Shown one piece after another: positions 19,240-35,765 of a stretch of DNA of 64,000 bases. Origin of the DNA: Paracoccaceae bacterium (GTDB lineage: Bacteria; Pseudomonadota; Alphaproteobacteria; Rhodobacterales; Rhodobacteraceae). Made by a program: the position numbers and the translations under genes. The stretch is taken from NCBI GenBank assembly GCA_022843025.1, contig JALHOL010000001.1, positions 248,001 through 312,000 on the forward strand, in the 5' to 3' direction. Position 1 is the first letter of the stretch, and the number at the start of each line of letters is the position of its first letter. Under the pieces are notes generated by a model, which saw only the letters and a program-made list of their open reading frames with translations, made no database searches and had not been told where the DNA came from.

Positions 19240-19357
19240 CGATTTCTGACGCAGAAATCGCGACGTTTTCTGCACGCAGAAAACGGGGGGCTGGCGTTGC
19301 GGCGGGGGTGCCGATTTCTGTGTCAGAAATCGGTGCATTTTTTGCGTCAAAAAATGC
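19240..19357. repeat. Composite four-palindrome element, copy 1
   Basis: Four perfect palindromes in order. P1: arms cgatttctg/cagaaatcg, loop ACG (19240-19260). P2: cgttttctg/cagaaaacg, loop CACG (19264-19285). A 25-nt G-rich spacer. P3: ccgatttctg/cagaaatcgg, loop TGT (19311-19333). P4: gcattttttg/caaaaaatgc, loop CGT (19335-19357). It fills the space between the smpB stop (19359) and sseA. The order, spacing and part of the spacer are shared with the copies at 25093 and 35657. The likely role (RNA structure, cruciform or protein array) is unknown. Confidence 0.9.
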
Positions 19358-19358
19358 T

Positions 19359-19838
19359 TCAGTCGCGCTTTGACATCTTCAGGAGCCGTGCCTTTTCGCG
19401 TTCCCAGTCACGCTTGGCGCTGGTTTCGCGTTTGTCGGCCAGCTTCTTGCCCTTGGCGATGCCGAGCTTGAGCTTCACCATGCCGCGGTCGTTGAAATAC
19501 ATCTTGATCGGGACGATCGTCATGCCTTCGCGGGCGGTGGCGTTCCACAGGCGCGACAGTTCTTTCTTGCTGACCAGCAGTTTGCGGCGGCGGCGTTCGT
19601 CATGGCCCCAGGTTTTGGCCTGAAGATAGGGGGCGATGTAGCCGTTGATGAGCCACAACTCGCCGCCTTCGACCGAGGCATAGCTTTCGGCGATGTTCGA
19701 TCCGCCTTGGCGGAGGCTTTTCACCTCGGACCCCAGCAGCATGATGCCAGCCTCGAGGTCGCTTTCGATATGGTAATCGAAACGCGCGCGACGGTTTTCG
19801 GCTATCAGTTTGGAATTGGGATCGGACTTGGTGACCAT
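19359..19838 (-). CDS. smpB: SsrA-binding protein SmpB
   Basis: A 159-residue SmpB, the tmRNA-binding protein of trans-translation, which rescues ribosomes stalled on broken mRNA. The family core is complete: [20 protein letters not shown] in part, [32 protein letters not shown], then [12 protein letters not shown], and the positively charged tail starting [14 protein letters not shown], which enters the mRNA channel. It is encoded 48 nt downstream of the EamA transporter in the dapA-transporter-smpB direction; a dapA-smpB neighbourhood is common in alphaproteobacteria. Immediately after its stop comes the first four-palindrome element, whose P4 ends one base from the stop codon. Confidence 0.97.
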
Positions 19839-19886
19839 GATCGGTTGGAGATAGGCGATGCGGTGGGCACTGTCCAGAAGGGGCGG

Positions 19887-20771
19887 TCAGGGTTGCCGTG
19901 AACGGGCGCGGCTGCGCGCGAGGGTGTAAAGGCCGGAGCCTACGACGAGGGCCGAGCCGATGAGGGTATAGGCATCGGGGGTTTCGTTGAAGACGAGGAT
20001 GCCAAGGAGCATCGCAAAGACGAGCCGCGTGTAGCGGAACGGGGTGACGGCCGCGACCTCGCCCGTGCGCATGGCTATGGTCAGGGCGTTATAAGCAAAG
20101 ATGCCAAAGCCCGTCATTCCGGCCAGAAGGGCGAGGGTGCGCGTGTCGGGCAGGGTTGCGCCGCCCGTGACCGCAAGGATGGCCGCCCCGGCAAGGGCGA
20201 GCATGGCCATGCCGATCACGCCAAGTTGGCGGTTGGACAGGGTGAGCGGGGCCGCGCGGGTGGCAAGGTCGCGCCCGGCAAAGCCGATGAGGCCCACCAC
20301 GGTGACAAGCGAGAGGGGGGTGAAGCCATCCAGCCCCGGGCGCAGGATGATGAGGACACCGGCAAAGCCCACGAGAATGGCCGTCCAGCGCCGCCAGCCG
20401 ACACTTTCGCCGAACAGCAGCGCGGCCCCTGCGACCACGACCAGGGGCGTGGCTTGCAGGATGGCCGAGGCGGTGGAAAGGGGCGTGAGCGCGATGGCGA
20501 GGGAGTAGAAGATGCGTCCTGTCACCTCGAACCCCGAACGGAGGAGCAGGGGGCGTGAGAGCATGGCGGGGCTCAGCGCCGCCTCACCCATCTGCCGCGC
20601 GCGGAGGGCGAAGAAAAGGGTGCCAGTAAGGCCGAAAATCAGAAGGGCCTGACCAAGGGGGATATGGGCGGTGACGGCCTTGAGGAACATGTCCTCGATG
20701 GCGAAACCCGCCATGGCCGTCACCATCCAGAGCGCCCCGCGCAGGTTGTTGCGCGGGTTGGTCGCGGTCAC
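19887..20771 (-). CDS. DMT superfamily permease with two EamA domains
   Basis: A 294-residue inner-membrane protein with ten predicted helices arranged as two EamA repeats. The repeat signature is seen near the end of the first half ([20 protein letters not shown] then [16 protein letters not shown]) and again in the second ([21 protein letters not shown]). EamA permeases export or import metabolites such as amino acids or S-adenosylmethionine; the substrate cannot be read from the sequence. The GTG start at 20769-20771 overlaps the dapA stop (GTGA), so translation is coupled to dapA. The protein ends in a basic RSRARSRQP tail. Confidence 0.9.
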
Positions 20772-21640
20772 AGGATGCCCGCGTGTTCCATTGCGGCCTT
20801 GATCTTGGCCTTGGTGCCGTCGGTCAGGCCGACCAGCGGGAGGCGGACCTCATCAGAGCAGCGGCCCAGAAGGGAGAGGCCGTATTTTGCGCCGGCCAGG
20901 CCGGGTTCGATGAAGATCGCCTCATGCAGGGGCATCAGGCGATCCTGGTATTCCAGTGCCTTGCGGTAATCGCCTGCAAGGGTGGCCTGCTGAAACTCGG
21001 CGCAAAGCTTGGGGGCAACGTTGGCGGTGACCGAGATGCAGCCGGTGCCGCCATGGGCGTTGAAGCCGAGGGCTGTGGCATCCTCACCCGACAGCTGGAT
21101 GAAATCCGGCCCGCAGGAGGCGCGCTGCATGGAGACGCGTTCGATTTTGCCGGTGGCATCCTTGACCCCGATGATGCGGGGCAGTTGCGCGAGTTTGCCC
21201 ATGGTTTCGGGCTGCATGTCCACGACCGAGCGGCCGGGGATGTTGTAGATGACGATGGGAAGCGTGCAGCAATCATGCAGCGCGGTGTAATGCGCGATCA
21301 TGCCGGCCTGCGTGGGCTTGTTGTAATAGGGCGTCACGACAAGCGCGGCATCGGCCCCCACGCGTTCGGCGTGCTGGATCAGGCGGATGCCTTCGACAGT
21401 GTTGTTCGACCCCGCGCCCGCGATCACCGGAACGCGGCCTGCGGCGAATTTCACCACGGCCTCGACCACGGCCTCATGCTCTTCGTGGCTGAGGGTGGGG
21501 CTTTCGCCCGTGGTGCCCACGGGAACAAGGCCGGTGGAGCCCTGTTCGATCTGCCAATCGACAAGTTTCTTCAGCGTATCCAGATCAAGTTCGCCGTTCT
21601 TGAACGGCGTAACCAGGGCGGGAATGGACCCTTGGATCAT
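20768..21640 (-). CDS. dapA: 4-hydroxy-tetrahydrodipicolinate synthase
   Basis: A 290-residue class I aldolase-type enzyme that condenses pyruvate with aspartate semialdehyde, the first committed step to diaminopimelate and lysine. Key residues are visible: GTTGE at 42-46 (Thr43/Thr44), Tyr132 in [10 protein letters not shown], and the Schiff-base Lys160 in IIGVKDATG. Product is needed both for lysine and for peptidoglycan cross-links. It leads a short operon with an EamA permease and smpB, and is divergent from the lytic transglycosylase gene at 21810. The ATG at 21638-21640 gives the standard N-terminus [13 protein letters not shown]. Confidence 0.96.
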
Positions 21641-21809
21641 GGCACGCGTCTCCTGTCTTGGGGCGTGAGTCGCCCTGTTGCAAACGCGCCCTTCCTAACG
21701 GTGTGGCAAAGCCTTGCCAAGCGGGGCAGGTGTTGACGCGGTTGTGGGTTGCGGGGGCGGGCGGGGTGCGGCAGAGTCTGGCGTTAAGGATCACGAGCAG
21801 TCAAAAACG

Positions 21810-23765
21810 ATGATCGGGCAGATGATGGCAAGAGCGCGCACCCTTGGGTGGGTTATTTCCCTATTTCTGATGGTGGCACCGGTGCCGGTGCTGGCCGATG
21901 GCGCGGCGGCGCTGCGGCAGGCGATGCGGCTTGCCTCGGCCGGTGATTGGGACGGGGCTGCAGGGGCGGCTCAGGGGGCCGGGCAGGTTGGGGCCGACAT
22001 CATCACCTGGCAGCGGTTGCGTGCCGGGGATGGGCGGCTGGGGGATTATGAGGATTTCATCGCGCGCCGGGCCGATTGGCCGGGCATGGCGCTGCTGAAG
22101 GAAAAGGGCGAAGAGGCGGTCGCACGGTCCACCGATCCGGGCCGGGTGATTGCCTATTTCACCGGGCGCACGCCGGAAACGGCTGAGGGATCGCTGGCGC
22201 TGATTTCGGCGCTGCGCAGTTCGGGGCGGGATGCCGAGGCGGAGGCCGAGGCCTTTCGTGCCTGGACGGAACTGCCCTTTGCGCCGGATCAGGAGCAGGC
22301 CATTCTGGGGCTGTATGGCGATGCTCTGAGGGTTGCGCATGAGGTGCGGCTGGACCGGCTGTTGTGGCAGAACCGGGTGTCCGAGGCGAAGCGGATGCTG
22401 CCGCGCGTGGGGCCGGGATGGCAGGCGCTGGCGCAGGCGCGAATGGCGCTGCGCGGGGATGCGGATGGGGTGAATGCGCTGATCGAGCGGGTGCCTGCGG
22501 ATTTGCAGGCCGATCCGGGGCTGGTTTATGAACGGTTCGACTGGCGGTTCCGCCGGGACCGCGATGACGAGGCGGCGGAGCTGGTGATCGCGCAATCTAA
22601 AAGCGCGGCGGCGCTGGGAGACCCCGAAGCCTGGGCCGAACGGCGGGCGGCGTTGGCGCGGTCGCTGCTGCGGGCGGACAAGGCGCAGGCGGCGTATCGC
22701 GTGGCGGCAAGCCATTTCACGACGGCCGGGTCGGGTTATGCCGATCTGGAGTTTCTGGCGGGGTTCATTGCGCTGCGAAAGCTGGGCGATGCGACCACGG
22801 CCTTGACGCATTTCCGCAATCTGCGCGAGGGGGTGGCGACACCGATTTCTGTAAGCCGGGCGCATTACTGGGCCGGGCGGGCGCTGCTGGCGGCAGGCGA
22901 TCAGGCGGGCGGCACGGCCGAGTTGCAGAAGGCGGCAGAGCATCACAGCGCCTATTACGGGCTGCTGGCGGCCGAGGCGCTGGGACAGTCGCTGGACCCC
23001 GCGCTGTTGAACGATGCGCGGCCTGCGGATTGGCGGGGGGCGTCTTTTGCCAATTCGTCGGTTCTTGAGGCGGCGATGGTGCTGAGCCGGGCGGGGGAGC
23101 GGAACCTTGCGAAGCGGTTCTTCCTGCATCTGGGCGAAAGCCTGAATGGCACCGAGCTGGACCAGCTGGCCGATCTGGCGTTGCAGATGGATGAGCCGCA
23201 TATCGCGCTGGTGGTGGCCAAGCAGGCGGCGGAAAAGGGAGTGATCCTGCCGCGCAGCTATTACCCGGTGCCGTCTTTTGTGCCGGGGGACGGGTTGCCG
23301 GTAAGCCGGGCGCTTGCCTTGGCCATTTCGCGGCGAGAGTCTGAGTTCGATCCCGCAGCGCGGTCGGCGGCGGATGCGCGGGGTTTGATGCAGGTACTGC
23401 CATCGACCGCCAAGCTGGTGGCGCCAAGGGTGGGGCTGTCCTTTGATGCGGGCAAGCTGAACGATCCGGGGTATAACGTGCGGATCGGGACCGGCTATCT
23501 TGCGCAATTGGTTGAGCAATTCGGGCCATCGGTGGCGCTGATCGCGTCGGGTTACAATGCCGGGCCGGGGCGGCCGAAGCGGTGGATCGGGTTGTTTGGC
23601 GATCCGCGCGATCCGAATGTGGATGTGGTGGATTGGGTGGAGATGATCCCGTTTACCGAAACGCGGACCTATGTGATGCGGGTGACGGAGAGCCTTGTGA
23701 TCTATCGCGCCATCCTGCGCGGGTCGGTGGGGCCGGTGGATGTAACGGGGGAGTTGCGGGGGTAG
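21810..23765 (+). CDS. slt: Soluble lytic murein transglycosylase
   Basis: A 651-residue periplasmic enzyme with an N-terminal signal peptide (hydrophobic TLGWVISLFLMVAPVPVLA, cleavage near residue 33). A long alpha-helical superhelical U/L region follows, and a C-terminal goose-type lysozyme domain. The catalytic Glu is Glu510 in ISRRESEFDPAARS; the rest of the domain reads GLMQVLPSTAKLVA and ASGYNAGPGRPKRW. It cleaves peptidoglycan glycan strands with formation of 1,6-anhydromuramic acid. Divergent from dapA, a frequent alphaproteobacterial neighbourhood. The ATG at 21810 is assumed; ATGs at 21822 and 21825 would also keep the signal peptide. Confidence 0.93.
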   Translation: MIGQMMARARTLGWVISLFLMVAPVPVLADGAAALRQAMRLASAGDWDGAAGAAQGAGQVGADIITWQRLRAGDGRLGDYEDFIARRADWPGMALLKEKGEEAVARSTDPGRVIAYFTGRTPETAEGSLALISALRSSGRDAEAEAEAFRAWTELPFAPDQEQAILGLYGDALRVAHEVRLDRLLWQNRVSEAKRMLPRVGPGWQALAQARMALRGDADGVNALIERVPADLQADPGLVYERFDWRFRRDRDDEAAELVIAQSKSAAALGDPEAWAERRAALARSLLRADKAQAAYRVAASHFTTAGSGYADLEFLAGFIALRKLGDATTALTHFRNLREGVATPISVSRAHYWAGRALLAAGDQAGGTAELQKAAEHHSAYYGLLAAEALGQSLDPALLNDARPADWRGASFANSSVLEAAMVLSRAGERNLAKRFFLHLGESLNGTELDQLADLALQMDEPHIALVVAKQAAEKGVILPRSYYPVPSFVPGDGLPVSRALALAISRRESEFDPAARSAADARGLMQVLPSTAKLVAPRVGLSFDAGKLNDPGYNVRIGTGYLAQLVEQFGPSVALIASGYNAGPGRPKRWIGLFGDPRDPNVDVVDWVEMIPFTETRTYVMRVTESLVIYRAILRGSVGPVDVTGELRG

Positions 23766-23851
23766 CGGTTCGTTCCCGACGCCCTTTGTCGCGCGTGATG
23801 CAGACGGGGGTGTGCGGGGAATGCGCTGATTGCACAAATTTGTGACAGATC

Positions 23852-25087
23852 ATGGCCACCCGATACCTTCCCCTTTTCCTGCGGCATAGCCCGACCCCGC
23901 GCGTGCAGAACTTTGCCTTGCTGGCCGGGATCGAGGCGAGCGTGCGCGGGACGCTGATTTCGGCCATGCCATTGACGGTGTATGCCTCGCTTGGCAGCGC
24001 CGAGGCCACGTCGAGCGCCTATTTCTGGGCGGGGATCGTGGCGCTGGTCTGGGGGTTGATGGTGCCGTGGTTCACCCGGCACCTGCCCCGGCGGTGGATG
24101 TATACGTCGGGCTGTCTGCTGTATCTGGTGGGGATGACGCTGGCGGTCATCGGCACGCCGGTGACGGTGCCGCTGGCTTTGATGTGCCTTGCCAGTGCGA
24201 CCGCGACGACATTCGTCTGTTTCAACGCCTATGTTCTTGATTACATAGACCGCACCGATTTGGGGCGCAGCCAATCCACGCAGATGGTCTATTCCGCAGC
24301 GCCCTGGGCGATTGGGCCGATGCTGGGGGTGACGCTGCATGATCTGTGGGCGCCGGCGCCGTTCCTGCTGGCGGGGACGTTTGCGGTGGTGTTGCTGGTG
24401 GTGTTCTGGATCCTGCGGTTGGGGAACGGCAAGCAGATCACGCGGGCGAAGGGACCCGCGCTGAACCCGCTGGCCTATCTGGGGCGGTTCTTTCAGCAAC
24501 CGCGTCTGATTGCCGGGTGGATGTTTGCGGTGATGCGGTCCTGCGGGTGGTGGGTCTATGTGGTGTATCTGCCGATCTTTTGCATCGAAGCGGGCCTCGG
24601 TGACAAGGTGGGGGGCGTGGCGCTGTCGATTTCCAACGCGCTGCTATTCATCTCGCCCCTGATGCTGCGCTATGCGCGGCGGCGGTCGGTGCGGCGGGCG
24701 GTGCGGACGGCGTTCGGGCTGTGCGGATTGTGCTTTGTGACAAGCGCGCTGTTTTCGCCGCTGCCCTGGGTGGCGGTGGTGGCGATGATGGGGGCGTCGG
24801 TCTTTCTGGTGCTGTTGGATGTGGTGGGGGGGTTGCCCTTCCTGATGGCGGTGAAGCCGTCGCAGCGAACGGAAATGTCGGCTGTTTACAGCAGTTTCCG
24901 GGATGTGTCGGGGATCATGACACCGGCGGCGGCGTGGATCGTTCTGGTGCCGTTCGGCGCGCCGCTGGCGGCGTTCTTTGCGGTGACGGGGGCCGGGATG
25001 CTGGGGGCTTTTGCGATTGCGGGGCGGCTGCATCCGCGGTTGGGGACGCTGCGGCCTTCGCATGGGCGGCCTGTGCCGGGGGAGTGA
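23852..25087 (+). CDS. MFS transporter
   Basis: A 411-residue membrane protein with about twelve hydrophobic helices and the even spacing of the major facilitator superfamily. The first half contains WFTRHLPRRWMYTSG, a loop 2-3 segment with the usual positive charges, and the middle loop is basic (NGKQITRAKG). The substrate is not evident; it is a generic drug or sugar transporter-like type. It starts 86 nt after slt on the same strand and may be transcribed with it. The gene is followed directly by the second four-palindrome element and then by the mcd terminator reading the other way. Confidence 0.88.
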   Translation: MATRYLPLFLRHSPTPRVQNFALLAGIEASVRGTLISAMPLTVYASLGSAEATSSAYFWAGIVALVWGLMVPWFTRHLPRRWMYTSGCLLYLVGMTLAVIGTPVTVPLALMCLASATATTFVCFNAYVLDYIDRTDLGRSQSTQMVYSAAPWAIGPMLGVTLHDLWAPAPFLLAGTFAVVLLVVFWILRLGNGKQITRAKGPALNPLAYLGRFFQQPRLIAGWMFAVMRSCGWWVYVVYLPIFCIEAGLGDKVGGVALSISNALLFISPLMLRYARRRSVRRAVRTAFGLCGLCFVTSALFSPLPWVAVVAMMGASVFLVLLDVVGGLPFLMAVKPSQRTEMSAVYSSFRDVSGIMTPAAAWIVLVPFGAPLAAFFAVTGAGMLGAFAIAGRLHPRLGTLRPSHGRPVPGE

Positions 25088-25092
25088 AGCAG

Positions 25093-25208
25093 GCGAATTC
25101 TGACGCAGAATTCGCGGCGTTTTCTGCACGCAGAAAACGGGGTGGCGCTGTCGCTTGGGGGCGATTTCTGTGCGCAGAAATCGTGCCATTTTCTGCGTCG
25201 GAAAATGG
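25093..25208. repeat. Composite four-palindrome element, copy 2
   Basis: Palindromes in the same order as copy 1. P1: gcgaattctg/cagaattcgc, loop ACG (25093-25115). P2: cgttttctg/cagaaaacg, loop CACG (25118-25139), identical to copy 1. A 22-nt spacer similar to that of copy 1. P3: cgatttctg/cagaaatcg, loop TGCG (25162-25183). P4: ccattttctg/cggaaaatgg, loop CGT with one G-T pair (25186-25208). P1 and P4 differ from copy 1 at several arm positions, each matched by a complementary change. It begins 5 nt after the MFS stop. Confidence 0.9.
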
Positions 25209-25251
25209 TTTGGTTAAGGGTTTGTTAACCGCTTTTGAGCTGCGAGACGCA

Positions 25252-25285
25252 AAAGGCGCGGACCGTTCGCACGGTCCGCGCCTTT
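25252..25285 (-). terminator. Strong hairpin terminator of mcd
   Basis: A perfect 15-bp stem (25252-25266 with 25271-25285) and a 4-nt loop lies 30 nt after the mcd stop. On the leftward strand the second arm ends in CCTTT followed by a further T. The symmetrical A/T ends mean it could also stop transcription from the MFS gene. Confidence 0.8.
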
Positions 25286-25314: not shown

Positions 25315-26982
25315 TCAATCCAGAAGGCGGCGGGCGATGACCTGGGCCTGAATTTCGGCCGCGCCTTCGAAGATGTTCAGGATGCGCGCGTCACATAGGA
25401 TGCGGCTGATCGTGTATTCCAGCGCAAAGCCGTTGCCGCCGTGGATTTGCAGCGCGTTATCGGCGCTGGCCCATGCGACGCGGGCGCCCAGCAGCTTGGC
25501 CATGCCCGCCTCAAGATCGCAGCGCTTGTCGTGATCCTTTTGCCAGGCGGAGAAATAGGTGAGCTGGCGGGCCACCATGATTTCCACCGCCATCATCGCC
25601 AACTTGCCGGAAACGCGGGGGAATTCGATCAGGGATTTGCCGAATTGCTTGCGATCTTCGGCATATTTCATGCCGACCTCCAGCGCGGATTGTGCCACGC
25701 CCACGGCGCGGGCGGCGGTCTGGATGCGGGCGGATTCGAAGGTTTGCATCAGCTGTTTGAAGCCTTGGCCTTCGACGCCGCCGAGAAGGTTTTCGCCCTT
25801 CACTTTGAAAGCGTCGAAGTTGACGGTGTATTCCTTCATGCCGCGATAGCCGAGAACCTCGATCTCGCCACCCGACAGGCCAGCGTCCACGAAGGGGGTT
25901 TCATCGGTGCCGGGGGTCTTTTCGGCCAGGAACATCGACAGGCCGCGATAATCGGTCGTGCCGTCGATGGTGCGGGCGAGGACGGTCATCACATGGGTGC
26001 GGGCGGCGTGGGTGATCCAGGTCTTGTTGCCGTTGATGACCCAGTCATCACCTTCCTTGCGGCCCTTGGTGCGCAGGGAGCCGAGGTCGGACCCGGTGTT
26101 GGGTTCTGTAAAGACCGCGGTGGGGAGGATTTCGCCGGAGGCGAGTTTGGGGAGCCATTTGGCCTTTTGTTCAGGCGTGCCGCCGCAAAGGATCAGCTCT
26201 GCCGCGATTTCGGAGCGGGTGCCAAGGGAGCCCACGCCGATATAGCCGCGCGACAGTTCTTCGGACACCACGACCATGGAGGCCTTGGACAGGCCGAAGC
26301 CGCCGAATTCTTCAGGGATGGTCAGGCCAAAGACGCCCATTTCGGCAAGGGAATCAATGATTTCCATCGGGATCAGTTCATCGCGCAGGTGCCAGCCTTG
26401 GGCGTGCGGGATGACCTTGTCATCGGCGAAGCGGCGGAATTGATCGCGGATCATTTCCAGTTCTTCATCCAACCCGGAGGCGCCAAAGGTGGCGCGGCCG
26501 TGATTGTCGCGCATCAATTCCACGAGGCGGGTGCGGGCGGCGACGGTATTGCCCTGGGCCATGAGGGCAACCGCCGCCGCGCCGGGTTTGGCCGGGGTGA
26601 GGCCGAGGTCCTGCAAGCGCGCGACCTCTCCCTGGCTCATCGGAATGCCGCCTTGGATCTGCTGGAGGTATTCGCCATAGGCGATCTGGAGGAGCAGCGC
26701 CTCCATTTCCGAGAACTTGCCATCGGCATCGAGGCGCAGCGCCCAGGCCTGCATCTGGCGCAGGCTTTCGGTGTAGGTGGCGAGCCATGCCAGCGCATGG
26801 GCGGCGTATTGGTGTTCTTCCAGTGCAGCGGCAGAGACCTTGCCCGCAACGGTGACCATGCCGCGGAGGTTTTCGCGGGCGGCGATGAAGGTGGCCTCGA
26901 CCTCGGGGAGGGCTTCGGCCGTGAGGCGGAGAAGGTCGGCGAGGAGGGGCGACTGCGTCACGGACTGGCCATCGTGGGGCAT
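25315..26982 (-). CDS. mcd: (2S)-methylsuccinyl-CoA dehydrogenase (ethylmalonyl-CoA pathway acyl-CoA dehydrogenase)
   Basis: A 555-residue acyl-CoA dehydrogenase with an N-terminal extension of about 160 residues before the standard fold. That extension (KVSAALEEHQYAAHALAWLA-like, with AWLATYTESLRQMQAWALRL) is the hallmark of methylsuccinyl-CoA dehydrogenase, which makes mesaconyl-CoA. FAD-binding and substrate motifs FTEPNTGSDLGSLRTKG and QIHGGNGFALEYTISRI are present. Electrons go to ETF, encoded at 37.7-39.4 kb. The pathway converts acetyl-CoA to glyoxylate and succinate equivalents in bacteria without isocitrate lyase. Start: the ATG at 26982 follows aaggtgatcccg; an ATG 18 codons upstream has no ribosome site. 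The family call rests on the extension and overall length. Confidence 0.88.
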   Translation of the reverse strand: MPHDGQSVTQSPLLADLLRLTAEALPEVEATFIAARENLRGMVTVAGKVSAAALEEHQYAAHALAWLATYTESLRQMQAWALRLDADGKFSEMEALLLQIAYGEYLQQIQGGIPMSQGEVARLQDLGLTPAKPGAAAVALMAQGNTVAARTRLVELMRDNHGRATFGASGLDEELEMIRDQFRRFADDKVIPHAQGWHLRDELIPMEIIDSLAEMGVFGLTIPEEFGGFGLSKASMVVVSEELSRGYIGVGSLGTRSEIAAELILCGGTPEQKAKWLPKLASGEILPTAVFTEPNTGSDLGSLRTKGRKEGDDWVINGNKTWITHAARTHVMTVLARTIDGTTDYRGLSMFLAEKTPGTDETPFVDAGLSGGEIEVLGYRGMKEYTVNFDAFKVKGENLLGGVEGQGFKQLMQTFESARIQTAARAVGVAQSALEVGMKYAEDRKQFGKSLIEFPRVSGKLAMMAVEIMVARQLTYFSAWQKDHDKRCDLEAGMAKLLGARVAWASADNALQIHGGNGFALEYTISRILCDARILNIFEGAAEIQAQVIARRLLD

Positions 26983-27352
26983 CGGGATCACCTTGGAAAG
27001 GGCATGCTGCGGTTGCGAGATAGGTAGTGCCTTCATGTGCGCTGAGCAACTTAATTTCGCTGGAAAAACGTCAAGTGAAGGAAAATGTCGCAGCGGAATT
27101 TCTGTGGTCTGTATGCCAAAGCGGTGCGGGTGGCAGCGTTTTGTGGTCTAAGCTCTTGCGGGCGCTGTATTAATGGGCCGGATTGCGGTGCAGCGGCCGG
27201 TGCAGATGCCTGTGCAGACGGGCGTATGCACGCAGCGCACGGTGGTTGGGCGGTTAACCACGTTTGGGATTGGGCTTTGAGGGGTGAGTCGGCCCTTGGC
27301 TTTGCCAAGCCGGGGCGGCATGGTCGCAGCCGACAGGGCGCGGGGGGCTGGA
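26983..27352. other. Divergent intergenic region between mcd and the TauE/SafE gene
   Basis: 370 bases separating two divergent genes. The part next to mcd is relatively AT-rich (around 27040-27120) and probably carries its promoter. No gene, strong hairpin or known operator is evident. The frame open from 27284 into the permease has a weaker start than 27353. Confidence 0.55.
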
Positions 27353-28203: not shown

Positions 28204-28207
28204 GCAA

Positions 28208-29806
28208 TCAGCCGATGGCGGCGGCCTTTACGTCATCGTCGATGAAGGGGACGTATTGGGCGAAGTTCTTGGAGAACATGTCCACCAGTTTCGCGGCCTG
28301 CGCGTCATAAGCGGCCTTGTCGGCCCAGGTGTTGCGCGGGTCGAGAAGTGCGGTGTCCACGCCCGGCACGGCGACCGGCACCTCGAACCCGAAATTCGGG
28401 TCGCGGCGGAATTCCACGGTGCCGAGGGAGCCATCGAGTGCGGCCGAGAGCAGCGCGCGGGTGGCCTTGATCGGCATCCGCTTGCCCGTGCCGAAGGCGC
28501 CGCCGGTCCAGCCGGTGTTGACCAGCCAGCAGGTTGCGCCGTGCTTGGCGATCTTGGCTTGCAGCAGCTTGCCATAGACCTCGGGCCGGCGGGGCATGAA
28601 GGGCGCGCCGAAGCAGGTGGAGAAGGTGGGCTGCGGTTCGGTGACGCCGCGTTCGGTGCCAGCCACCTTGGCGGTGAAGCCGGACAGGAAGTGATACATG
28701 GCCTGCGCGGGCGTCAGCCGCGAGATGGGCGGCAGGACGCCGAAGGCATCGCAGGTGAGCATGATGATGTTCTTGGGGTGCCCGCCAAGGCCGGTGCTGG
28801 AGGCGTTGGAGATGTAGTCCAGCGGATAGGCGCAGCGCGTGTTGGCGGTCAGGCTGTCATCGTTGAAATCAAGTTCCAGCGTTTCGGGATCATAGACCAT
28901 GTTTTCCACCACGGTCGCGAAGCGGTGGGTGGTGGCGTAGATTTCGGGTTCTGCCTCGGGGTCGAGGTTGATGGTCTTGGCGTAGCAGCCGCCCTCAAAA
29001 TTGAAGGAGCCGCGGTCGGACCAGCCGTGTTCATCGTCGCCGATCAGGGTGCGGTCGGGCGATGCGGAAAGCGTGGTCTTGCCCGTGCCGGAGAGGCCAA
29101 AGAAGACCGCCGTGTCGACCGGGTTGCCGATGGCGTGGTTGGCCGAGCAGTGCATCGGCATCACGCCTTTTTCGGGCAGCAGGTAGTTGAGCAGGGTGAA
29201 GACGGACTTTTTGTTTTCGCCCGCATAGGCCGTGTTGGCGATCAGGATCAGCTTCTTGTCGAAGTGGAAGGCGATGACGGTTTCGCTGCGGCAGCCGTGG
29301 CGGGCCGGGTCGGCCTTGAAGCTGGGGCAGTTGATGATGGTCCATTCGGGGACGAAGCTGTCGAGCTCGGCCCGGGCGGGGCGGCGCAGGACGTGGCGGA
29401 TGAAAAGGCCGTGCCAGGCCAGTTCGGTGACGACGCGCACATCGAGGCGATGCACGGGGTCGGCCCCGGCATAGAGATCCTGAACGAAGTAATCGCGGCC
29501 CTGCATATGGGCCAGCATGTCGGCATGGAGGCGATCAAAGCCTTCGGGCGGCATGGCGGCGTTGTTTTCCCACCAGATCGTCTTTTCCACCGACGCGGTG
29601 CGGACGACATGCTTGTCCTTGGGGGAGCGGCCGGTGAACTGACCGGTGGAGCAGAGGAAGGCACCGCCGATGCCAAGCCTGCCTTCGCCCCGGGTGACCG
29701 CAGCTTCGACAAGGGCTGGTTCGGGGAAGTTGTAATAGACGTTCCCGAGGCCGGTGATGCCTTGATGTGCCAATTCCTGCGCGGGGTTCACGCGTCCGTT
29801 CGTCAT
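28208..29806 (-). CDS. pckA: Phosphoenolpyruvate carboxykinase (ATP)
   Basis: A 532-residue ATP-dependent PEPCK, the normal length. It decarboxylates and phosphorylates oxaloacetate to PEP, the entry to gluconeogenesis. Walker A is GLSGTGKT at 237-244, the metal-binding kinase-2 region is IGDDEHGW at 255-262, and TGRSPKDK (58-65) and the C-terminal NTGWTGG are family signatures. It is divergent from chvI, the usual alphaproteobacterial arrangement, in which ChvI homologues control pckA in some species. The ATG at 29806 has an aggag site upstream. It fits the acetyl-CoA-assimilation theme of mcd and etfAB. Confidence 0.97.
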
Positions 29807-30184
29807 CCTGCAAGCTCCTGTGGCCGGGATCGCACCGACCATGTCCATTCCAGTGAAGTCCTGCCCGGGCCAAAGGGCAGATGCCGACGTCCGGGCCAAA
29901 TCGGCCGCGACATAAAATTGCTATAACACGTCGTTTGCCGCATGGAACAGGACGCTTTCGCACAGTTAGCGCAACCATTGCGAGTTTAGCGCAACCAGTG
30001 GATACAATCCTGCCCGCAGGACGGGAATGTGCGGCAATTTGGCCATTTCTGTGGGTTTTCCGCGACGGTTGCGCCCCACAGATGACGTGATTCGCACATA
30101 TCGGTTGATTCCCTGCGATGGAAAATCGATCATGCCCCACAAAACAAAAAATCAATGACACACGGGCAGAGTAGGGAAATCGAT
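29807..30184. promoter_or_regulatory. Divergent pckA-chvI promoter region with repeated TTAGCGCAACCA
   Basis: 378 bases between pckA and chvI. They contain two copies of ttagcgcaacca at 29966-29977 and 29986-29997, exactly 20 nt apart (two helical turns). An inverted core ggttgcgc lies at 30067-30074. OmpR-family regulators such as ChvI typically bind tandem direct repeats, so self-control or pckA control by ChvI is plausible, but this is inference. The half next to chvI is AT-rich. Confidence 0.45.
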
Positions 30185-30886
30185 ATGGCAAGGATCGCGC
30201 TTGTCGACGATGACAGGAATATCCTGACATCCGTCGCAATGACCTTGGAAGCCGAGGGCTTTGAAGTAGAAACGTATAATGACGGTCAATCGGCGCTGGA
30301 CGCCTTTAACCGTCGGCTGCCGGACATGGCGGTTCTGGATATCAAGATGCCGCGGATGGACGGGATGGACCTGTTGCAGCGGCTGCGGCAGAAAACCAGC
30401 ATGCCGGTGATCTTTTTGACATCCAAGGATGACGAGATCGACGAGGTTCTGGGTCTGCGCATGGGCGCGGATGACTATGTGAAGAAGCCGTTCAGCCAGC
30501 GCCTGCTGGTGGAGCGCATCCGGGCGCTGCTGCGCCGGCAGGATGCGATTGCCAGTGGCGAAGTGGCGGTGACGGAAGAGACCAAGATCATGGAGCGGGG
30601 CAACCTGCGCATGGACCCGCTGCGCCATTCGGTGACCTGGAAGGGCAATGATGTGGCGCTGACGGTGACGGAGTTCATGCTGTTGCAGGCGCTGGCCCAG
30701 CGGCCCGGTTTCGTGAAGAGCCGGGATCAGCTGATGGACGTGGCCTATGACGACCAGGTCTATGTGGACGACCGCACCATCGACAGCCACATCAAGCGGC
30801 TGCGTAAAAAAATGCGGGCGGTGGACGACAACTTTTCGGCCATCGAGACGTTATATGGAATCGGCTATCGCTATAACGAAGAGTAA
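30185..30886 (+). CDS. chvI: Two-component response regulator ChvI
   Basis: A 233-residue OmpR/PhoB-type regulator. The receiver domain has acidic residues VDDD at 7-10, the phosphoacceptor Asp52 in [11 protein letters not shown] and the Lys of DDYVKKPFS. The C-terminal winged helix carries [20 protein letters not shown] and [14 protein letters not shown]. It matches ChvI, partner of ChvG, which governs envelope, acid and exopolysaccharide responses in alphaproteobacteria. The stop at 30884-30886 is directly followed by the chvG ATG with no gap. It heads the operon chvI-chvG-hprK-rapZ-manX-hpr. The ATG at 30185 gives the normal [10 protein letters not shown] start. Confidence 0.95.
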
Positions 30887-32578
30887 ATGACCGCAGCACC
30901 GCGCATTGGAAAGGATGGCCGCCCGGCCCGTTCGGGCGAGGTGATCCTTGGGGAAGACTGGACCTCGGGTGAGGGGCTGGTCGATCCTGCCTTGCGCGCA
31001 AGCCGTGACAGGCGGGGGCTGGTGTCGTTGAACCGGTCGCCGCTGGCGCGGAAGATCATCCTGTTCAACCTGCTGGCGCTGCTGGTGCTGGCAGGGGGGG
31101 TGCTGTTTCTGAACCCGTTCCGCGATACGCTGGTGGGCCTGCGCGGTGAGGCGCTGGTGAACGAGGCGGCGCTGGTGTCGGACGTGTTCGAGGCCGTGGC
31201 CGCAGAGGCGCCGGGGCCGATGGATGCGGCGCGGCTGTCGCGGGTGCTGGAAAGCGTGCAGGTGCCGCCGGGGGTTGAGGCCTTTGCGGTGGCGGCGGAT
31301 GGCACGCTGGCAGCGCGACGGATGGGTGCGGACCGCCCGGCGATCGTGACGCGGCCGACGCCGATCGTCGATACGCTGACCGGGGCTTGGAACGGGGTGC
31401 GGAGCCTTGTGTCAGGGGCCGAGCCGGATGCCGCGGCGACGGACGGGTTTGCGCTGGTGCAGACGTTGCTGCCTGCCGCGCTGAAGGGCGAGGGCGTGCG
31501 GATCGACGGTCGCGCGCCGGATGGCGGGCGGCTGTTTGCCGTGGCGCAACCGGTGACGGTGAACGGGCAGGTTCTGGCCGTTGTCGCGCTGAGCGGCGAT
31601 CAGGCCGGGATTGACGTGCTGGTGCGCGGCGAGCGGGAACAGGTTCTGCTGATCTTCATCGCGTCGCTGATGGTGTCCTTTGGCCTGAGCCTTGTGCTGG
31701 CATCGACGATTGCCAATCCGCTGTCTGACCTTGCGGCGGCGGCGGAGTTGGGGCGCGACAGGGATGCGCGCAAGATGGCACCCGGGCGGGTGCGTATCCC
31801 CGATCTGGCGGCGCGACCCGATGAGATCGGGCGGCTGTCGGTGGCGATGCGGGGCATGGTGGCGGCGCTCTATGACCGGATCGACGCAAATGAGCAGTTC
31901 GCGGCGGATGTGGCGCATGAGATCAAGAACCCCCTTGCCAGCCTGAGGTCTGCCGTCGGCACGATGCGGCTGGCCAAGCGGGACGACCAGAAGAACAAGC
32001 TGCTGGACGTGATCGAGCATGACGTGCGGCGGCTGGACCGGCTGGTGAGCGACATTTCCAACGCGTCGCGGCTGGACAGCGAATTGGTGAAGGAGGAGGA
32101 GGAGGAGTTCAACCTTGTCCGCACCCTTTCCAACATCGCGGAGTATCTGGGCCAGCAGGCCAATGAGAAGGGTGTCGAGTTCATCACCGATTTCCCGGGC
32201 GATCCGATCATGATCCGGGGGCTGGAGGCGCGGCTGGCGCAGGTTTTTGTGAACCTGATCACCAATGCGATCAGCTTTTGCGAAGATGGCGATGCGGTGC
32301 GCGTCTGGGCGCGGCGGCGTGAGAACCGGGTGCTGATCGTGGTCGAGGATACTGGGCCGGGGATTCCGGAACAGGCACTGACCAAGGTATTCAAGCGGTT
32401 CTATTCCGAACGTCCGCAGGTTCAGTTCGGCGAACATTCGGGGCTGGGGCTGGCGATTTCCAAGCAGATCGTCGAGGCGCATGGCGGCGTGATCTGGGCC
32501 GAGAACATCCGCCCGACCCATGCGGATGTGACCTCTGATCCGCTGGGCGCACGGTTTGTGGTGGGTCTGCCGGTGTGA
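30887..32578 (+). CDS. chvG: Sensor histidine kinase ChvG
   Basis: A 563-residue membrane kinase: a cytoplasmic N-tail of about 55 residues, a first membrane helix (IILFNLLALLVLAGGVLFL), a periplasmic sensor domain of about 180 residues, and a second helix (LLIFIASLMVSFGLSLVLA). HAMP follows, then the dimerisation domain with phospho-acceptor His344 in DVAHEIKNPLASLRS, and a HATPase with N box LITNAISFCED and G1 VVEDTGPGIPEQ. It pairs with ChvI encoded immediately upstream. In related species the periplasmic regulator ExoR inhibits ChvG; none is in the window. Its end overlaps hprK by GTGA. Confidence 0.95.
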   Translation: MTAAPRIGKDGRPARSGEVILGEDWTSGEGLVDPALRASRDRRGLVSLNRSPLARKIILFNLLALLVLAGGVLFLNPFRDTLVGLRGEALVNEAALVSDVFEAVAAEAPGPMDAARLSRVLESVQVPPGVEAFAVAADGTLAARRMGADRPAIVTRPTPIVDTLTGAWNGVRSLVSGAEPDAAATDGFALVQTLLPAALKGEGVRIDGRAPDGGRLFAVAQPVTVNGQVLAVVALSGDQAGIDVLVRGEREQVLLIFIASLMVSFGLSLVLASTIANPLSDLAAAAELGRDRDARKMAPGRVRIPDLAARPDEIGRLSVAMRGMVAALYDRIDANEQFAADVAHEIKNPLASLRSAVGTMRLAKRDDQKNKLLDVIEHDVRRLDRLVSDISNASRLDSELVKEEEEEFNLVRTLSNIAEYLGQQANEKGVEFITDFPGDPIMIRGLEARLAQVFVNLITNAISFCEDGDAVRVWARRRENRVLIVVEDTGPGIPEQALTKVFKRFYSERPQVQFGEHSGLGLAISKQIVEAHGGVIWAENIRPTHADVTSDPLGARFVVGLPV

Positions 32579-33000
32579 CCGGCGACGGCCTGCTGCTGCA
32601 CGCGACCTGCGTGGCGGTCGAGGGGCGGGGCATTCTGATCATCGGGCCATCGGGGGCGGGCAAATCGGCGCTGGCCTTGCAGCTTATGGCGCTGGGCGCG
32701 CGGCTGGTGGCGGATGATCAGGTGGCGCTTTCGCAGCGCGATGGGGCGCTTTGGGCCGCGTGCCCGCCGACGATCCGGGGAATGATCGAGGCACGGGGGG
32801 TGGGTCTGCTGAATGCCGATCCCGTTGAGGGGGCCGAAGTGGTGCTGGCAGTCGATCTGGGGCAGGGGGAAACGATGCGCCTGCCGCCGCGACGTGAGGT
32901 TTCCTATCTTGGGCGGAGCGTGGACCTTGTGCTGGGAAGCCAAACGCCCCATTTCCCGGCTTCGCTGCTGCTCTATGTCAGTGCAGGACGCAGGGAATGA
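32575..33000 (+). CDS. hprK: HPr kinase/phosphorylase, short alphaproteobacterial form
   Basis: At 141 residues this is only the C-terminal catalytic half of classical HprK (about 310). Alphaproteobacterial HprK proteins generally have this short form. Walker A is GPSGAGKS at 24-31, and [11 protein letters not shown] matches the HprK signature after the P-loop domain. It phosphorylates or dephosphorylates HPr at a serine; the HPr encoded three genes downstream does have Ser46. A GTG start overlaps the chvG stop (GTGA), and the end overlaps rapZ (ATGA), so the operon is tightly coupled. This links ChvG signalling and the PTS relay. Confidence 0.93.
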
Positions 33001-33947
33001 CGGACGTGCCCGTGACGGATGTACCAAACGCACAAGGATCGGTGCCGATGCAGGAGCATCGGCTGGTGCTGGTGACCGGGCCTTCGGGGGCCGGACGGTC
33101 GACCGCGATCGATGCGCTGGAAGATCTGGGTTATGAGGTGATCGACAATCTGCCGCTGAGCCTTGTGCCGCGGCTGATTGAGGGGGCGCCGCTGGGGCGG
33201 CCCATCGCGCTGGGCCTGGATGTGCGCAACCGCGATTTCAACGTGGCGGCGCTGATCGAGTTGATCGATGCGCTGACGCGGGATCCGCGGGTGACGCTGG
33301 AAATGATCTATGTGGATTGCGCGGCATCGGTGCTGATCCAGCGCTACAGCCAGACGCGGCGGCGCCATCCGCTGGCCCCGGCGGAAACGCCTGCCGAAGG
33401 GGTGGCGCGCGAGATTGATCTGTTGGCGCCGATCCGGGCGCGGGCGGATCATCTGATCGACACCAGTGAGATGAGCCCGCATGACCTGAAGGCGGAACTG
33501 GCGCAGTGGTTCGATCCACGGGTGGGCGAGCGGCTGGCGGTATCGTTGCAAAGCTTCAGCTATAAGCGCGGGATGCCGCGCGGTGTGGATATGGTGTTCG
33601 ATTGCCGGTTTCTGCGGAATCCCTATTGGGAACAGGCCTTGCGCGATCTGGACGGGCGCGATGAAGCGGTGGAGGCCTATATCCGCGGCGATGCGCGCTT
33701 TGCAGAATTCTACGGACGGTTGAGCGATCTGATCACCTTTCTGCTTCCGGCTATGGTGGAGGAAGGCAAGGCGCATCTGGCCATCGGCTTTGGCTGCACC
33801 GGCGGGCAGCATCGCAGTGTTGCAGTTGCAGAAATACTGGCCAAAGCGCTTGCAGAGGCGGGCTGGCCGGTGTCAAAACGTCACCGGGAACTGGAACGCA
33901 GGGCGGCATCGCAGCCGCCCTTGGCTACTGGGGTGACAGGCGCGTGA
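32997..33947 (+). CDS. rapZ: RapZ-family nucleotide-binding protein (RNase adapter)
   Basis: A 316-residue RapZ/YvcJ protein. The N-terminal P-loop reads GPSGAGRST at 28-36, with Arg where most P-loops have Lys. [16 protein letters not shown] follows, a family hallmark, and the C-terminal domain ends with the conserved [11 protein letters not shown]. In E. coli RapZ guides RNase E to GlmZ sRNA and binds glucosamine-6-phosphate; the alphaproteobacterial role is less clear, but it is always near hprK and PTS genes, as here. Overlaps hprK by ATGA and the EIIA gene by GTGA. An internal Met at residue 18 ([11 protein letters not shown]) is an alternative start. Confidence 0.92.
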
Positions 33948-34339
33948 TCGGTATCGTGATCGTTGCACATGGCGGGCTGGCGCGGGAATACCTGTCGGCG
34001 GTGGAGCATGTCGTGGGCAAGCAGGATGCGATGCGGGCCATCGCCATCGAGGATGACCATGACCGCAGCGCCAAGCAGGCGGAAATCTGCGCGGCGGCGG
34101 ATTCAGTGGATACCGGGGCGGGCGTAGTGGTGGTGACCGACATGTTCGGTGGATCGCCTTCGAACCTGTCGCTGATGGCGTGCAGCGGGCAGGATCGGCG
34201 CATCGTCTATGGCGCGAACCTGCCCATGCTGATCAAGCTGGCAAAATCGCGCGAGCTGACGGTGACCGAGGCGGTGGCGGCGGCGCTTGACGCGGGGCGC
34301 AAGTATATCAACAGTCTGGACCTTGGCGGCGGGGCGTGA
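33944..34339 (+). CDS. manX: PTS EIIA component, mannose/fructose (Man) family
   Basis: A 131-residue EIIA-Man domain protein. The phosphorylated His is His9 in [10 protein letters not shown], and the core has [17 protein letters not shown], as in ManX EIIA. There is no fused EIIB and no membrane EIIC/EIID nearby, so it is probably a regulatory phosphoacceptor of the HPr relay rather than part of a sugar transporter, as in other alphaproteobacteria. Started by a GTG that overlaps the rapZ stop. The HPr gene follows 10 nt after the stop. Confidence 0.93.
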
Positions 34340-34349
34340 GCTGGGGAAC

Positions 34350-34619
34350 ATGACGGGACGGGTATTGCGGATCATCAATGAAAAGGGCCTGCATGCGCGG
34401 GCGTCGGCCAAGTTTGTGGAAGTGGTGGAAAGCCACGAGGCACAGGCGCGGGTGACCAAGGACGGGATGACCGTTTCAGGGGATTCGATCATGGGTCTGC
34501 TGATGCTGGCCGCATCGCGCGGCACGGCCATCGAGGTGGCGACGCAGGGGGCGGAAGCGGAGAAGCTTGCCGATGCGCTGGAGGCGCTGGTTGCAAACCG
34601 CTTCGGCGAGGACTACTGA
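34350..34619 (+). CDS. ptsH: Phosphocarrier protein HPr
   Basis: An 89-residue HPr. His15 in KGLHARASAKF is the PTS phosphorylation site and Ser46 in SGDSIMGLLML is the site used by HprK, both at the classical positions. It passes phosphate to the EIIA-Man protein encoded just upstream and is controlled by HprK. The ATG at 34350 follows ctgggga. No EI (ptsP or ptsI) gene is in the window. The pair HprK plus Ser46 indicates that a serine-phosphorylation switch on HPr is intact in this organism. Confidence 0.95.
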   Translation: MTGRVLRIINEKGLHARASAKFVEVVESHEAQARVTKDGMTVSGDSIMGLLMLAASRGTAIEVATQGAEAEKLADALEALVANRFGEDY

Positions 34620-34649
34620 GGCGCGTCAGACGCGAAAGGCAAAGCCGCC

Positions 34650-35555
34650 GTGACCGAGACGTCGCAGAGCGAAGATCTCCGCAGCCTTGAGGTGAGCGAA
34701 GAGGAACTTGCCCGCCGCAGGGTGGAGCGGGCGGAACGCCCCTATGACATGCGCCGTCTGTCCTATGCCGGAACGTTCAAGAACCCGGTCAAGGCGAATA
34801 CGATCCGGGTTCTGGAATGGCTGACGGCGAAGGTTACGCTGCTGAAACTGATCCGGGATTTCGAGCGGACGGGGGCGCCGGTGGGCGCGCCGTTCTGGCC
34901 CAAGGCGATCCGTCAGATGGGGATCACCATCCAGACCCCGCCCGAGGAGATTGCGCTGATTCCGAAGACCGGGCCGCTGGTGGTGGTGTCGAACCACCCG
35001 TCGGGATTGGTGGACGGGATGGTTCTGGCGGAACTGGTCACGCGGGTGCGGTCGGATTTCAAGATCCTGACGCGGTCGCTGCTGACGGGGATTCCGGAAG
35101 TGGAACAGTTCATGATCCCGGTGCCCTTTCCGCATGAGGACAATGCGCGCGAATTGGGCCTGCAGATGCGGGACGAGACGATGAAGCATCTGAAGGCGGG
35201 GGGCGTGATCATCCTGTTCCCGGCCGGCAAGGTGGCGATGAGCGAGGGCTGGTGGGGCCCGGCGGTGGAGAGCGAGTGGAACGTCTTTACCCATAAGATC
35301 GTGAAATCCTCGGGCGCGACGATCCTGCCGGTGTATTTCCCCGGCCAGAATTCACGCGCCTTTCTGATCGCCAACAAGATCAGCGACACGGTCCGGCAGG
35401 GGCTGCTGCTGTATGAGATCAAGCGTTGCCTGTTCAAGCCGACGCGGCCCGTGATCGGTGCGCCGATCCCGGCGGAGGAGTTGAAGAAATGGGAAGGGAA
35501 CCCGCGCGGGTTCCTGGCGTGGTTGCGTGAGCATACGCTTTCGCTGAAGAAGTAG
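34650..35555 (+). CDS. PlsC-like lysophospholipid acyltransferase family protein
   Basis: A 301-residue protein with a PlsC-type acyltransferase core. The motif VVVSNHPSGLVDG (His116, Asp122) corresponds to the catalytic HX4D box but with five residues between His and Asp, as in the hemolysin-like/COG3176 subgroup. The later GGVIILFPAGKVAMSEGW is the block III equivalent. A first ~60 residues is polar and probably extends the N-terminus. No membrane helix is clear. It may acylate lysophospholipids or ornithine lipids; the exact acceptor is unknown. GTG start 30 nt after hpr; it may be the last gene of the chvI operon. Followed by repeat elements. Confidence 0.82.
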   Translation: MTETSQSEDLRSLEVSEEELARRRVERAERPYDMRRLSYAGTFKNPVKANTIRVLEWLTAKVTLLKLIRDFERTGAPVGAPFWPKAIRQMGITIQTPPEEIALIPKTGPLVVVSNHPSGLVDGMVLAELVTRVRSDFKILTRSLLTGIPEVEQFMIPVPFPHEDNARELGLQMRDETMKHLKAGGVIILFPAGKVAMSEGWWGPAVESEWNVFTHKIVKSSGATILPVYFPGQNSRAFLIANKISDTVRQGLLLYEIKRCLFKPTRPVIGAPIPAEELKKWEGNPRGFLAWLREHTLSLKK

Positions 35556-35567
35556 AGTGCAGGCCCT

Positions 35568-35641
35568 GATTTTTCGCAGGAAAATCGTGGGGCCTGTGAG
35601 GGGCGCGACGTTCGGCCTCAACGATTTTTCTGCGAAAAATC
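35568..35641. repeat. Two TGC-type palindromes in opposite orientation
   Basis: gatttttc/ggaaaatc with loop GCA (35568-35586) and gatttttc/gaaaaatc with loop TGC (35623-35641). GCA is the reverse complement of TGC, so the first unit is inverted relative to the second. The second is identical in sequence to 3160-3178. They lie just upstream of the third four-palindrome element, so both families meet in one gap between the acyltransferase and hbd. Confidence 0.8.
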
Positions 35642-35656
35642 AGGGGCCTTTGGGGC

Positions 35657-35765
35657 GATTTCTGGCGCAGAAATTGCTGCGGAATTTGACACAAACTCCG
35701 GGATCACGACGTTTGGCACCGATTTCTGCGTCAGAAATCGGCGCGGAAACTGCGTCAGTTTCCGC
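35657..35765. repeat. Composite four-palindrome element, copy 3
   Basis: P1: gatttctg/cagaaatt, loop GCG, one G-T pair (35657-35675). P2: cggaatttg/caaactccg, loop ACA, one mismatch (35680-35700). An 18-nt spacer. P3: ccgatttctg/cagaaatcgg, loop CGT (35719-35741). P4: gcggaaactg/cagtttccgc, loop CGT (35743-35765). The order and inter-palindrome gaps match copies 1 and 2. It ends 4 nt before the hbd stop and lies in a convergent gap. Confidence 0.88.

What the first reader, a model, noticed from the sequence alone, without database searches (positions are those of the whole stretch)
19240..35765. Composite intergenic element with four palindromes in fixed order, three copies
At 19240-19357, 25093-25208 and 35657-35765 the same architecture recurs: P1, gap of 2-4 nt, P2, spacer of 18-25 nt, P3, gap of 1-2 nt, P4. 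Each palindrome has arms of 8-10 bp and a 3-4 nt loop, with a shared inner core TTCTG-n-CAGAA in most. The whole is 109-118 bp and always lies next to a gene end. This is directly visible and is not explained by ordinary terminators, since no T-runs follow. It may be a mobile REP-like unit, a structured RNA or a protein-binding array. I recall no named family with this layout, so it could be undescribed.
Basis: partly seen in the sequence, partly recalled or inferred. Interest (0 to 1): 0.85.

Follow-up and report, generated by a model that had tools for sequence, protein, structure and literature searches.

The report
Four-hairpin repeat locked to gene ends
A short stretch of DNA that can fold into four small hairpins recurs dozens of times in this bacterium, mostly just after a gene's stop signal, and follows its own building rules, so it looks like a new variety of the repeats that many bacteria keep at the ends of their genes.

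Summary
Each copy is two hairpin doublets; the left pair carries triloop ACG, the right pair the mirror loop CGT, in a 24-25 bp register. A covariance model finds 38 loci in the genome, 30 paired, and matches in 18 of 18 genus genomes. Stems covary by Watson-Crick exchanges. Between two strains of the species stems differ at 1.0%, loops 5.0%, spacers 5.4%, coding flanks 2.3%. 96 of 120 composites lie within 15 nt of a facing stop codon (44 expected). Stem types alternate (16 of 28 own copies, 2.7 expected; mirrored order 0). No Rfam family, GTAG/CGTC tag, target duplication, or RAYT over cut-off in 19 genomes. Best reading: a new untagged REP/BIME-like family, a 3'-UTR hairpin array, perhaps once mobile. 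RNA or DNA action is not settled: wobble pairs show no strand bias (18 vs 12). Composites of the same design with another core occur in a second genus.

The parts
19239..19261 (.). copy 1 P1: 10-bp stem, loop ACG
19264..19285 (.). copy 1 P2: 9-bp stem, loop CACG
19286..19310 (.). copy 1 spacer, no sequence common with other spacers seen by eye
19311..19333 (.). copy 1 P3: 10-bp stem, mirror loop TGT (variant of CGT)
19335..19357 (.). copy 1 P4: 10-bp stem, loop CGT; ends 1 nt before the smpB stop codon
25093..25115 (.). copy 2 P1: 10-bp stem, loop ACG; 5 nt after the stop codon of the MFS gene
25118..25139 (.). copy 2 P2: 9-bp stem, loop CACG
25162..25183 (.). copy 2 P3: 9-bp stem, loop TGCG
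25186..25208 (.). copy 2 P4: loop CGT, one mismatch in the own strain, perfect in G061
25252..25285 (.). separate terminator-like hairpin (15-bp arms) after copy 2; a similar hairpin stands at the same place in the six relatives aligned (by eye)
35655..35677 (.). copy 3 P1: loop GCG, one mismatch
35680..35700 (.). copy 3 P2: loop ACA, one mismatch
35719..35741 (.). copy 3 P3: 10-bp stem, loop CGT
35743..35765 (.). copy 3 P4: 10-bp stem, loop CGT; ends 3 nt before the stop codon of the 3-hydroxyacyl-CoA dehydrogenase gene
19359..19838 (-). smpB (flanking gene, ends at copy 1)
   Evidence: PF01668
18312..19175 (-). rhodanese-domain gene downstream of smpB and copy 1
   Evidence: PF00581
23852..25087 (+). 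MFS transporter gene ending 5 nt before copy 2
25315..27036 (-). acyl-CoA dehydrogenase gene, converges on copy 2
34650..35555 (+). acyltransferase gene upstream of copy 3
35769..36647 (-). 3-hydroxyacyl-CoA dehydrogenase gene ending at copy 3

Best explanation
It is an untagged REP/BIME-like family of intergenic repeats. The unit is about 110-150 bp: a purine-rich end, hairpin H1, 1-2 nt, hairpin H2, a variable spacer, then the mirror image in loops and order (H2', H1'). It sits mostly right after stop codons, that is in the 3' UTR. Most likely working mode (inferred): transcripts that run past the stop codon fold it into a row of local hairpins that shield the mRNA 3' end from exonucleases and limit interference between neighbouring transcripts. 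Mirrored loops let it serve genes arriving from either side. Alternating stem types keep each hairpin folding on itself and not with its neighbour. Shown: copy number, anatomy, covariation, stem constraint, stop-codon locking, alternation. Inferred: transcription, folding in the cell, effect on mRNA. Its spread was probably by an old mobilisation that is now inactive or not identified (inferred).
For: 38 loci, 30 as pairs. Stem covariation: 207 cells of 988 changed on both sides, 67.3 in shuffles, 0 of 500 as high. Between two strains stems differ at 24 of 2304 positions, loops 20 of 398, other element bases 61 of 1133 (35 loci). 96 of 120 composites lie within 15 nt of, or overlap, a facing stop; 44.2 expected, largest of 5000 simulations 56; in 59 tandem gaps 49 hug the upstream stop and 5 the downstream start, median 4 versus 85 nt (orthologous copies of the two strains both count where they differ). 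In the own genome alone 29 of 38 loci are within 15 nt of a facing stop (my count of the rows). At the smpB stop 12 of 16 readable genus genomes keep a hairpin doublet: 6 this composite (two of them the same species), 1 a mix, 5 a doublet of another sequence class. Stem types alternate in 16 of 28 own composites, 2.7 expected. RNA folds of both strands of the three copies have z from -6.3 to -8.9.
Against: No transcript data. G-U pairs are hardly commoner than A-C mismatches when halves are oriented by loop (18 vs 12), so selection on the sense RNA is not visible. 13 of 120 composites lie between divergent genes, and the 3 own divergent copies keep 11 of 12 stems perfect. In tandem gaps the distal half looks no worse than the stop-proximal half (by eye). 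The minimum-energy RNA folds do not show four local hairpins but one long P1:P3 or P2:P4 stem plus one or two hairpins. The purine tract is present also at ends that face gene starts, which suits a DNA element with fixed ends. Avoidance of identical neighbours could also come from loss of repeats by slippage.
Confidence: 0.45

Rival explanations
1. A REPIN-like mobile or once-mobile DNA element: hairpins form in single-stranded DNA, are recognised by an unknown nuclease or transposase, and gene ends are merely tolerated landing places.
Against: Y1 transposase over cut-off in 0 of 19 genus genomes, one weak hit below it; no target duplication (5 of 126 with 2 or more equal bases, about 4.2 expected); 35 of 38 sites shared by two strains; arms and spacers differ between copies, unlike fresh transposition; the tight peak next to stops and the stem constraint point to function.
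Confidence: 0.27
2. A chromosome-level DNA element: tandem cruciforms, or binding sites for gyrase or a nucleoid protein, placed where transcription builds up supercoils.
For: Few wobble pairs of either kind; palindromes with A/T-rich inner stems and G/C at the base; enriched at gene 3' ends; 24-25 bp register.
Against: Tandem gaps (59 of 120) outnumber convergent ones (48); doublets of other sequence replace it at the same place, so no fixed protein site is kept. Nothing about DNA binding was tested.
Confidence: 0.15
3. A bidirectional transcription terminator or Rho-blocking structure.
For: Lies between stop codon and the next gene's 5' region; some spacers or edges carry a G+C-rich hairpin with A/T borders (own loci 13 and 26); in copies 1 and 2 the loose scan counts five or six element sites as terminator-like on the + strand, among them its top three, because the next hairpin's arm supplies T's.
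Against: The T's come only from T-rich next arms, and such arms alternate with A-rich ones, so a T-tract is not a kept feature; the scan finds no more sites than shuffles (15 vs 13.9); at copy 2 a separate terminator-like hairpin follows.
Confidence: 0.13

Closest known systems
REP sequences and BIMEs; GTAG- and CGTC-tagged REP super-families (Di Nocera 2013, PMC3733652; parts 1-2 of 8 and passages seen)
   Same: Short palindromes in many copies, often inverted dimers with variable spacers, close (<20 bp) to the 3' ends of convergent genes and of the upstream gene in tandem pairs, complementary stem variants, and a preference for unequal partners that the authors leave unexplained.
   Different: Here each half is itself a doublet in 24-25 bp register; no GTAG or CGTC tag; triloops; alternating stem types. 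The paper's main text has no occurrence of Rhodobacter or Paracoccus.
REPINs with RAYT transposases (PMC3116915; listing and start of abstract only)
   Same: Two inverted hairpin units as one composite with defined ends (REPIN layout recalled).
   Different: No RAYT over cut-off in 19 genomes; arms and spacers diverse; no recent movement seen.
Sinorhizobium RIME and A/B/C palindromic mosaics (recalled; search listing only)
   Same: Alphaproteobacterial intergenic composites of palindromes (recalled).
   Different: Sequence relation not tested.

Membership tests
REP/BIME (broad sense) | short palindromes, many intergenic copies | tested here: met
   38 loci in the own genome
REP/BIME (broad sense) | placed downstream of genes | tested here: met
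   96 of 120 composites within 15 nt of a facing stop, 44.2 expected
REP/BIME (broad sense) | units in inverted orientation | tested here: met
   126 of 135 neighbouring doublet pairs are + then -; the rest 5 - -, 3 + +, 1 unclear; 34 of 34 paired loci in G061
GTAG or CGTC REP super-families | unpaired GTAG or CGTC tag at one end | tested here: not met
   within 8 nt outside 252 ends: GTAG 3, CTAC 0, CGTC 1, GACG 8
REPIN/RAYT system | RAYT (Y1_Tnp) gene in the genome | tested here: not met
   0 of 19 genus genomes over cut-off; one hit below it in G008
MITE | target-site duplication | tested here: not met
   5 of 126 with 2 or more equal bases, about 4.2 expected by re-pairing flanks
Intrinsic terminator | G+C-rich stem followed by a U-tract | tested here: inconclusive
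   stems are A/T-rich inside; several hairpins of copies 1 and 2 pass a loose scan through the T-rich arm of the next hairpin; region total equals shuffles
Any Rfam family | match to a covariance model | tested here: not met
   none at the three copies at gathering level; none up to E=1 in 19200-25300 (copy 3 not included)
REP/BIME (broad sense) | transcribed and affects mRNA stability or translation | not testable with these tools
   no RNA data

The most novel reading that the evidence does not exclude
The design, not the sequence, is what is kept: in Rhodobacteraceae, 3' gene ends carry exchangeable hairpin-doublet cassettes of unrelated core sequence (TGACGCA, TTCGAA, TTCTGCGAA here; CCG-GCG-CGG in another genus) that obey one grammar. 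Neighbouring hairpins must not be able to pair with each other, loops mirror around the centre, and cassettes replace one another at the same stop codon.
Probability: 0.3. Interest if true: 0.75.

Novelty: new variant of a known kind. Interest (0 to 1): 0.55.

Why it matters
Why REP pairs prefer unequal partners was called without obvious explanation (PMC3733652, passage). Here such a preference is measured as an alternation of stem types under mirrored loops, which makes the idea that neighbours must not cross-pair directly testable by swapping stems. The replacement of one doublet class by another at the same gap, even between two strains of one species, gives a natural experiment on whether 3'-UTR hairpins are under selection for structure alone.

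Tried and rejected
Rfam: no family at the element. Viral contigs: 0 matches to one strict doublet pattern. Plasmids: no match to copy 1. RAYT: none over cut-off in 19 genomes. Target duplications and REP tags: none. Long-range P1:P3 stem as a selected feature: P1=P3 is in excess over all copies (28 of 126, 12.9 expected; 12.4 expected if neighbours must differ), but within one stem class three of four tests show no excess and one is weak (P 0.0245). Sample bias: 80 loci were fetched by one 21-mer, which could by itself push P2 and P3 apart; tests were repeated on own-genome copies and without those 80 loci, and alternation held (16 of 28, 2.7 expected; 38 of 71, 7.0 expected). In the own genome alone the rule that neighbours are never identical is only weakly supported (P1=P2 0, 2.6 expected, P 0.045; P3=P4 0, 1.8 expected, P 0.13; P2=P3 1, 4.4 expected, P 0.03). 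Generic doublet scan in 80 kb each of three other family genera (0, 1, 0) and two other families (0, 0): dense doublets are not general. One search printed nine of 16 loci at the wrong end; those nine were not read. The first hairpin parser had a bug (redone) and one script crashed (redone). An earlier count said that 8 genomes carry the composite at smpB; the correct count is 6 plus 1 mixed.
Full report
What is there. The three reported copies are real. The core pattern scan of the window gives 7 matches, 0.73 expected and none of 100 shuffles as high. A model of 11 doublets from the first copies found and searched over the whole own genome gives 141 matches, many of them the two strands of one place. 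Taking the better strand they fall into 38 loci, 30 of them two doublets 7-60 nt apart. Only 150 of 3151 first-look candidates were scored, so weaker copies may be missing. The sequences show one design: outer hairpin H1 with a 9-10 bp stem, 1-2 nt, inner hairpin H2, a spacer of 18-61 nt in which I see no common sequence (28 composites), then the mirror half. Start-to-start distance within a doublet is 24 bp in 59 of 64 doublets and 25 in the other 5, which have a 4-nt loop in the first hairpin. Loops are ACG or variants in the left half and CGT or variants in the right half: 58 of 64 doublets have both loops of one kind and 6 have one unassigned loop. In the conspecific genome G061 all 34 paired loci of 39 read + then -.

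Stems. In 53 oriented doublets (52 distinct) 98.8% of 988 stem cells pair; 207 cells differ on both sides from the commonest pair, against 67 in shuffles. Nearly all exchange one Watson-Crick pair for another. Over 326 oriented doublets from the loci held at that point (330 after removal of exact duplicates, 4 without clear orientation dropped; detection required a TG..CA core and at least 15 of 18 pairs, which inflates pairing; orthologous copies that differ by a base count separately) there are 18 G-U, 12 A-C and 16 other mismatches in 5868 cells. Had only the sense RNA mattered, G-U should clearly exceed A-C; it does not.

Constraint. 35 of 38 own loci align over essentially their whole length with an element-bearing locus of G061. 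Over those 35, stems differ at 24 of 2304 positions, loops 20 of 398, other element bases 61 of 1133, flanking coding 1107 of 48285, other intergenic 164 of 7584. 'Other element bases' include the gaps, the tenth pair and unparsed hairpins, and one badly aligned spacer (locus 18) adds to them. All 24 stem differences are one-sided. Across species, orthologous copies show compensating changes: at smpB the stop-proximal stem reads GCATTTTTTG in own, G061 and G008, GCATTTTCTG in G006 and G014, GCATTTTCCG in G002, each with its matching partner arm. At the 25.1-kb locus the composite is recognisable in the 7 genomes shown (own and 6 others; G007 could not be read), with P4 lost in G014 and G002.

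Place. With a home-made codon-usage gene caller the 38 own loci are 15 convergent, 20 tandem, 3 divergent, and 29 of 38 lie within 15 nt of a facing stop (my count). Over 120 composites with enough flank (126 less 6 at contig edges) the contexts are 48, 59 and 13; 96 lie within 15 nt of a facing stop or overlap it, 44.2 expected for uniform placement in the same gaps, maximum 56 in 5000 simulations; tandem copies hug the upstream stop (49 of 59) and not the downstream start (5 of 59). Some genes end on the TGA that the ACG loop carries (two examples printed). A purine-rich tract of about 6 nt stands outside both ends, also at ends that face gene starts.

Grammar. Adjacent hairpins of a doublet never have the same arm: 0 of 326, 31 expected. 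In 126 composites P2=P3 occurs 4 times, 26 expected; P1=P4 6, 13 expected; P1=P3 28, 12.9 expected; P2=P4 20, 10.6 expected. Sorting arms by bases 4-5 (purines R, pyrimidines Y) shows alternation: RYRY 28 and YRYR 26 of 110 distinct composites, 5.6 and 5.0 expected, while mirrored RYYR and YRRY occur once each, 4.3 and 6.6 expected. Because 80 loci had been fetched by one hairpin sequence, the test was repeated on the own genome alone: 16 of 28 alternate, 2.7 expected, none of 5000 shuffles as high, none mirrored (2.8 expected); and without those 80 loci: 38 of 71, 7.0 expected, none mirrored. With 28 copies the ban on identical neighbours itself is only weakly supported in the own genome. So loops are mirror-symmetric while stem types are translational, the opposite of what simple inverted duplication would leave. 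The plain reading is that neighbours are kept from pairing with each other; loss of identical neighbours by slippage fits part of it.

Turnover. Of 18 genus genomes with smpB (19 searched), 16 could be read at its stop codon: 6 carry this composite, 1 a mixture, 5 a doublet of another sequence class (TTCGAA core), 4 none. In G005 that other doublet stands in place of the proximal half while a decayed distal half remains. At own locus 36 the own strain has the composite, and G061, of the same species, as well as G001 and G012, has a TTCGAA doublet in the same gap; four others read there had no doublet and nine were not read. At the 35.6-kb locus own, G061 and G002 have the composite and G014, G005 and G008 do not. 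The own genome gives 16 pattern matches at 11 places for the TTCGAA class and 6 for the TTCTGCGAA class.

Spread. Matches in 18 of 18 genus genomes (2 to 101 each, 101 being the cap), 3 of 19 other genera of the family, 0 of 24 genomes of other families; 8 of 198 in a wider family sample at E<=1e-6, two of them in the genus. Nine weak hits of three other genera were read by eye: both from G026 are four-palindrome composites with mirrored triloops (GCG, GCG | CGC, CGT and GCG, GCG | CGC, CGC) and another core; the seven from G019 and G022 are single doublets with other cores.

Folding and termination. Both strands of the three copies fold far better than shuffles (z -6.3 to -8.9), but the minimum-energy folds hold one long P1:P3 or P2:P4 stem plus one or two hairpins, not four local hairpins. 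A loose terminator scan of 18900-36000 finds 15 sites, 13.9 expected; several of them are hairpins of copies 1 and 2 that borrow T's from the next arm.

Comparison. Di Nocera and colleagues (PMC3733652; parts 1-2 of 8 and passages seen) describe REP dimers of two tagged super-families at the same kind of places. Placement, inverted pairing and unequal partners agree; the tags do not, RAYTs are not found, and the doublet register and alternation are not in the parts I saw. RepRanger (PMC12306157) was searched by term only. Searches for a prior description; none of the rows listed (20 of 47, 20 of 63, 10 of 64, 8 of 9, 5 of 5, 15 of 141) names this element. Only an open-licence library was searched, so this is no proof of absence.

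Verdict. A real, abundant, structurally constrained repeat family, a new variant of the REP/BIME kind. A 3'-UTR role is the best single reading at 0.45; a REPIN-like DNA element is the main rival.

Noticed in passing
window 3160-3201, 28127-28166, 35623-35641: A second class of hairpins with core TTCTGCGAA, the first two as doublets; 6 doublet pattern matches genome-wide.
   Followed up: partly
L230-L245 (own genome): A third class: zero-gap doublets of 22-bp palindromes with core TTCGAA, 11 places; some lie 2-10 nt after a stop codon, others do not by my gene caller.
   Followed up: partly
L308 and L309 (G061) versus L052 (own): G061 has two decayed copies about 1.9 kb apart; the own genome has a single fused remnant there, as if recombination had removed or brought in the segment.
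   Followed up: partly
L094 and L353 (G026): Four-palindrome composites of the same design with CCG-GCG-CGG cores in another genus.
   Followed up: partly
window 58336-58430 and 15662-15775: Rfam matches: Rhodo-rpoB and ar14.
   Followed up: no
window 25118-25183 versus G006, G008, G014: The stems of P2 and P3 are exchanged between the own lineage and these relatives (TTTT/ATTT against ATTT/TTTT) while the spacer does not look inverted (by eye).
   Followed up: no
L008 / L056 (G000:C3:244410): A composite sits next to the end of a gene whose C-terminus, translated by eye, resembles that of single-stranded DNA-binding protein (name recalled, not searched).
   Followed up: no
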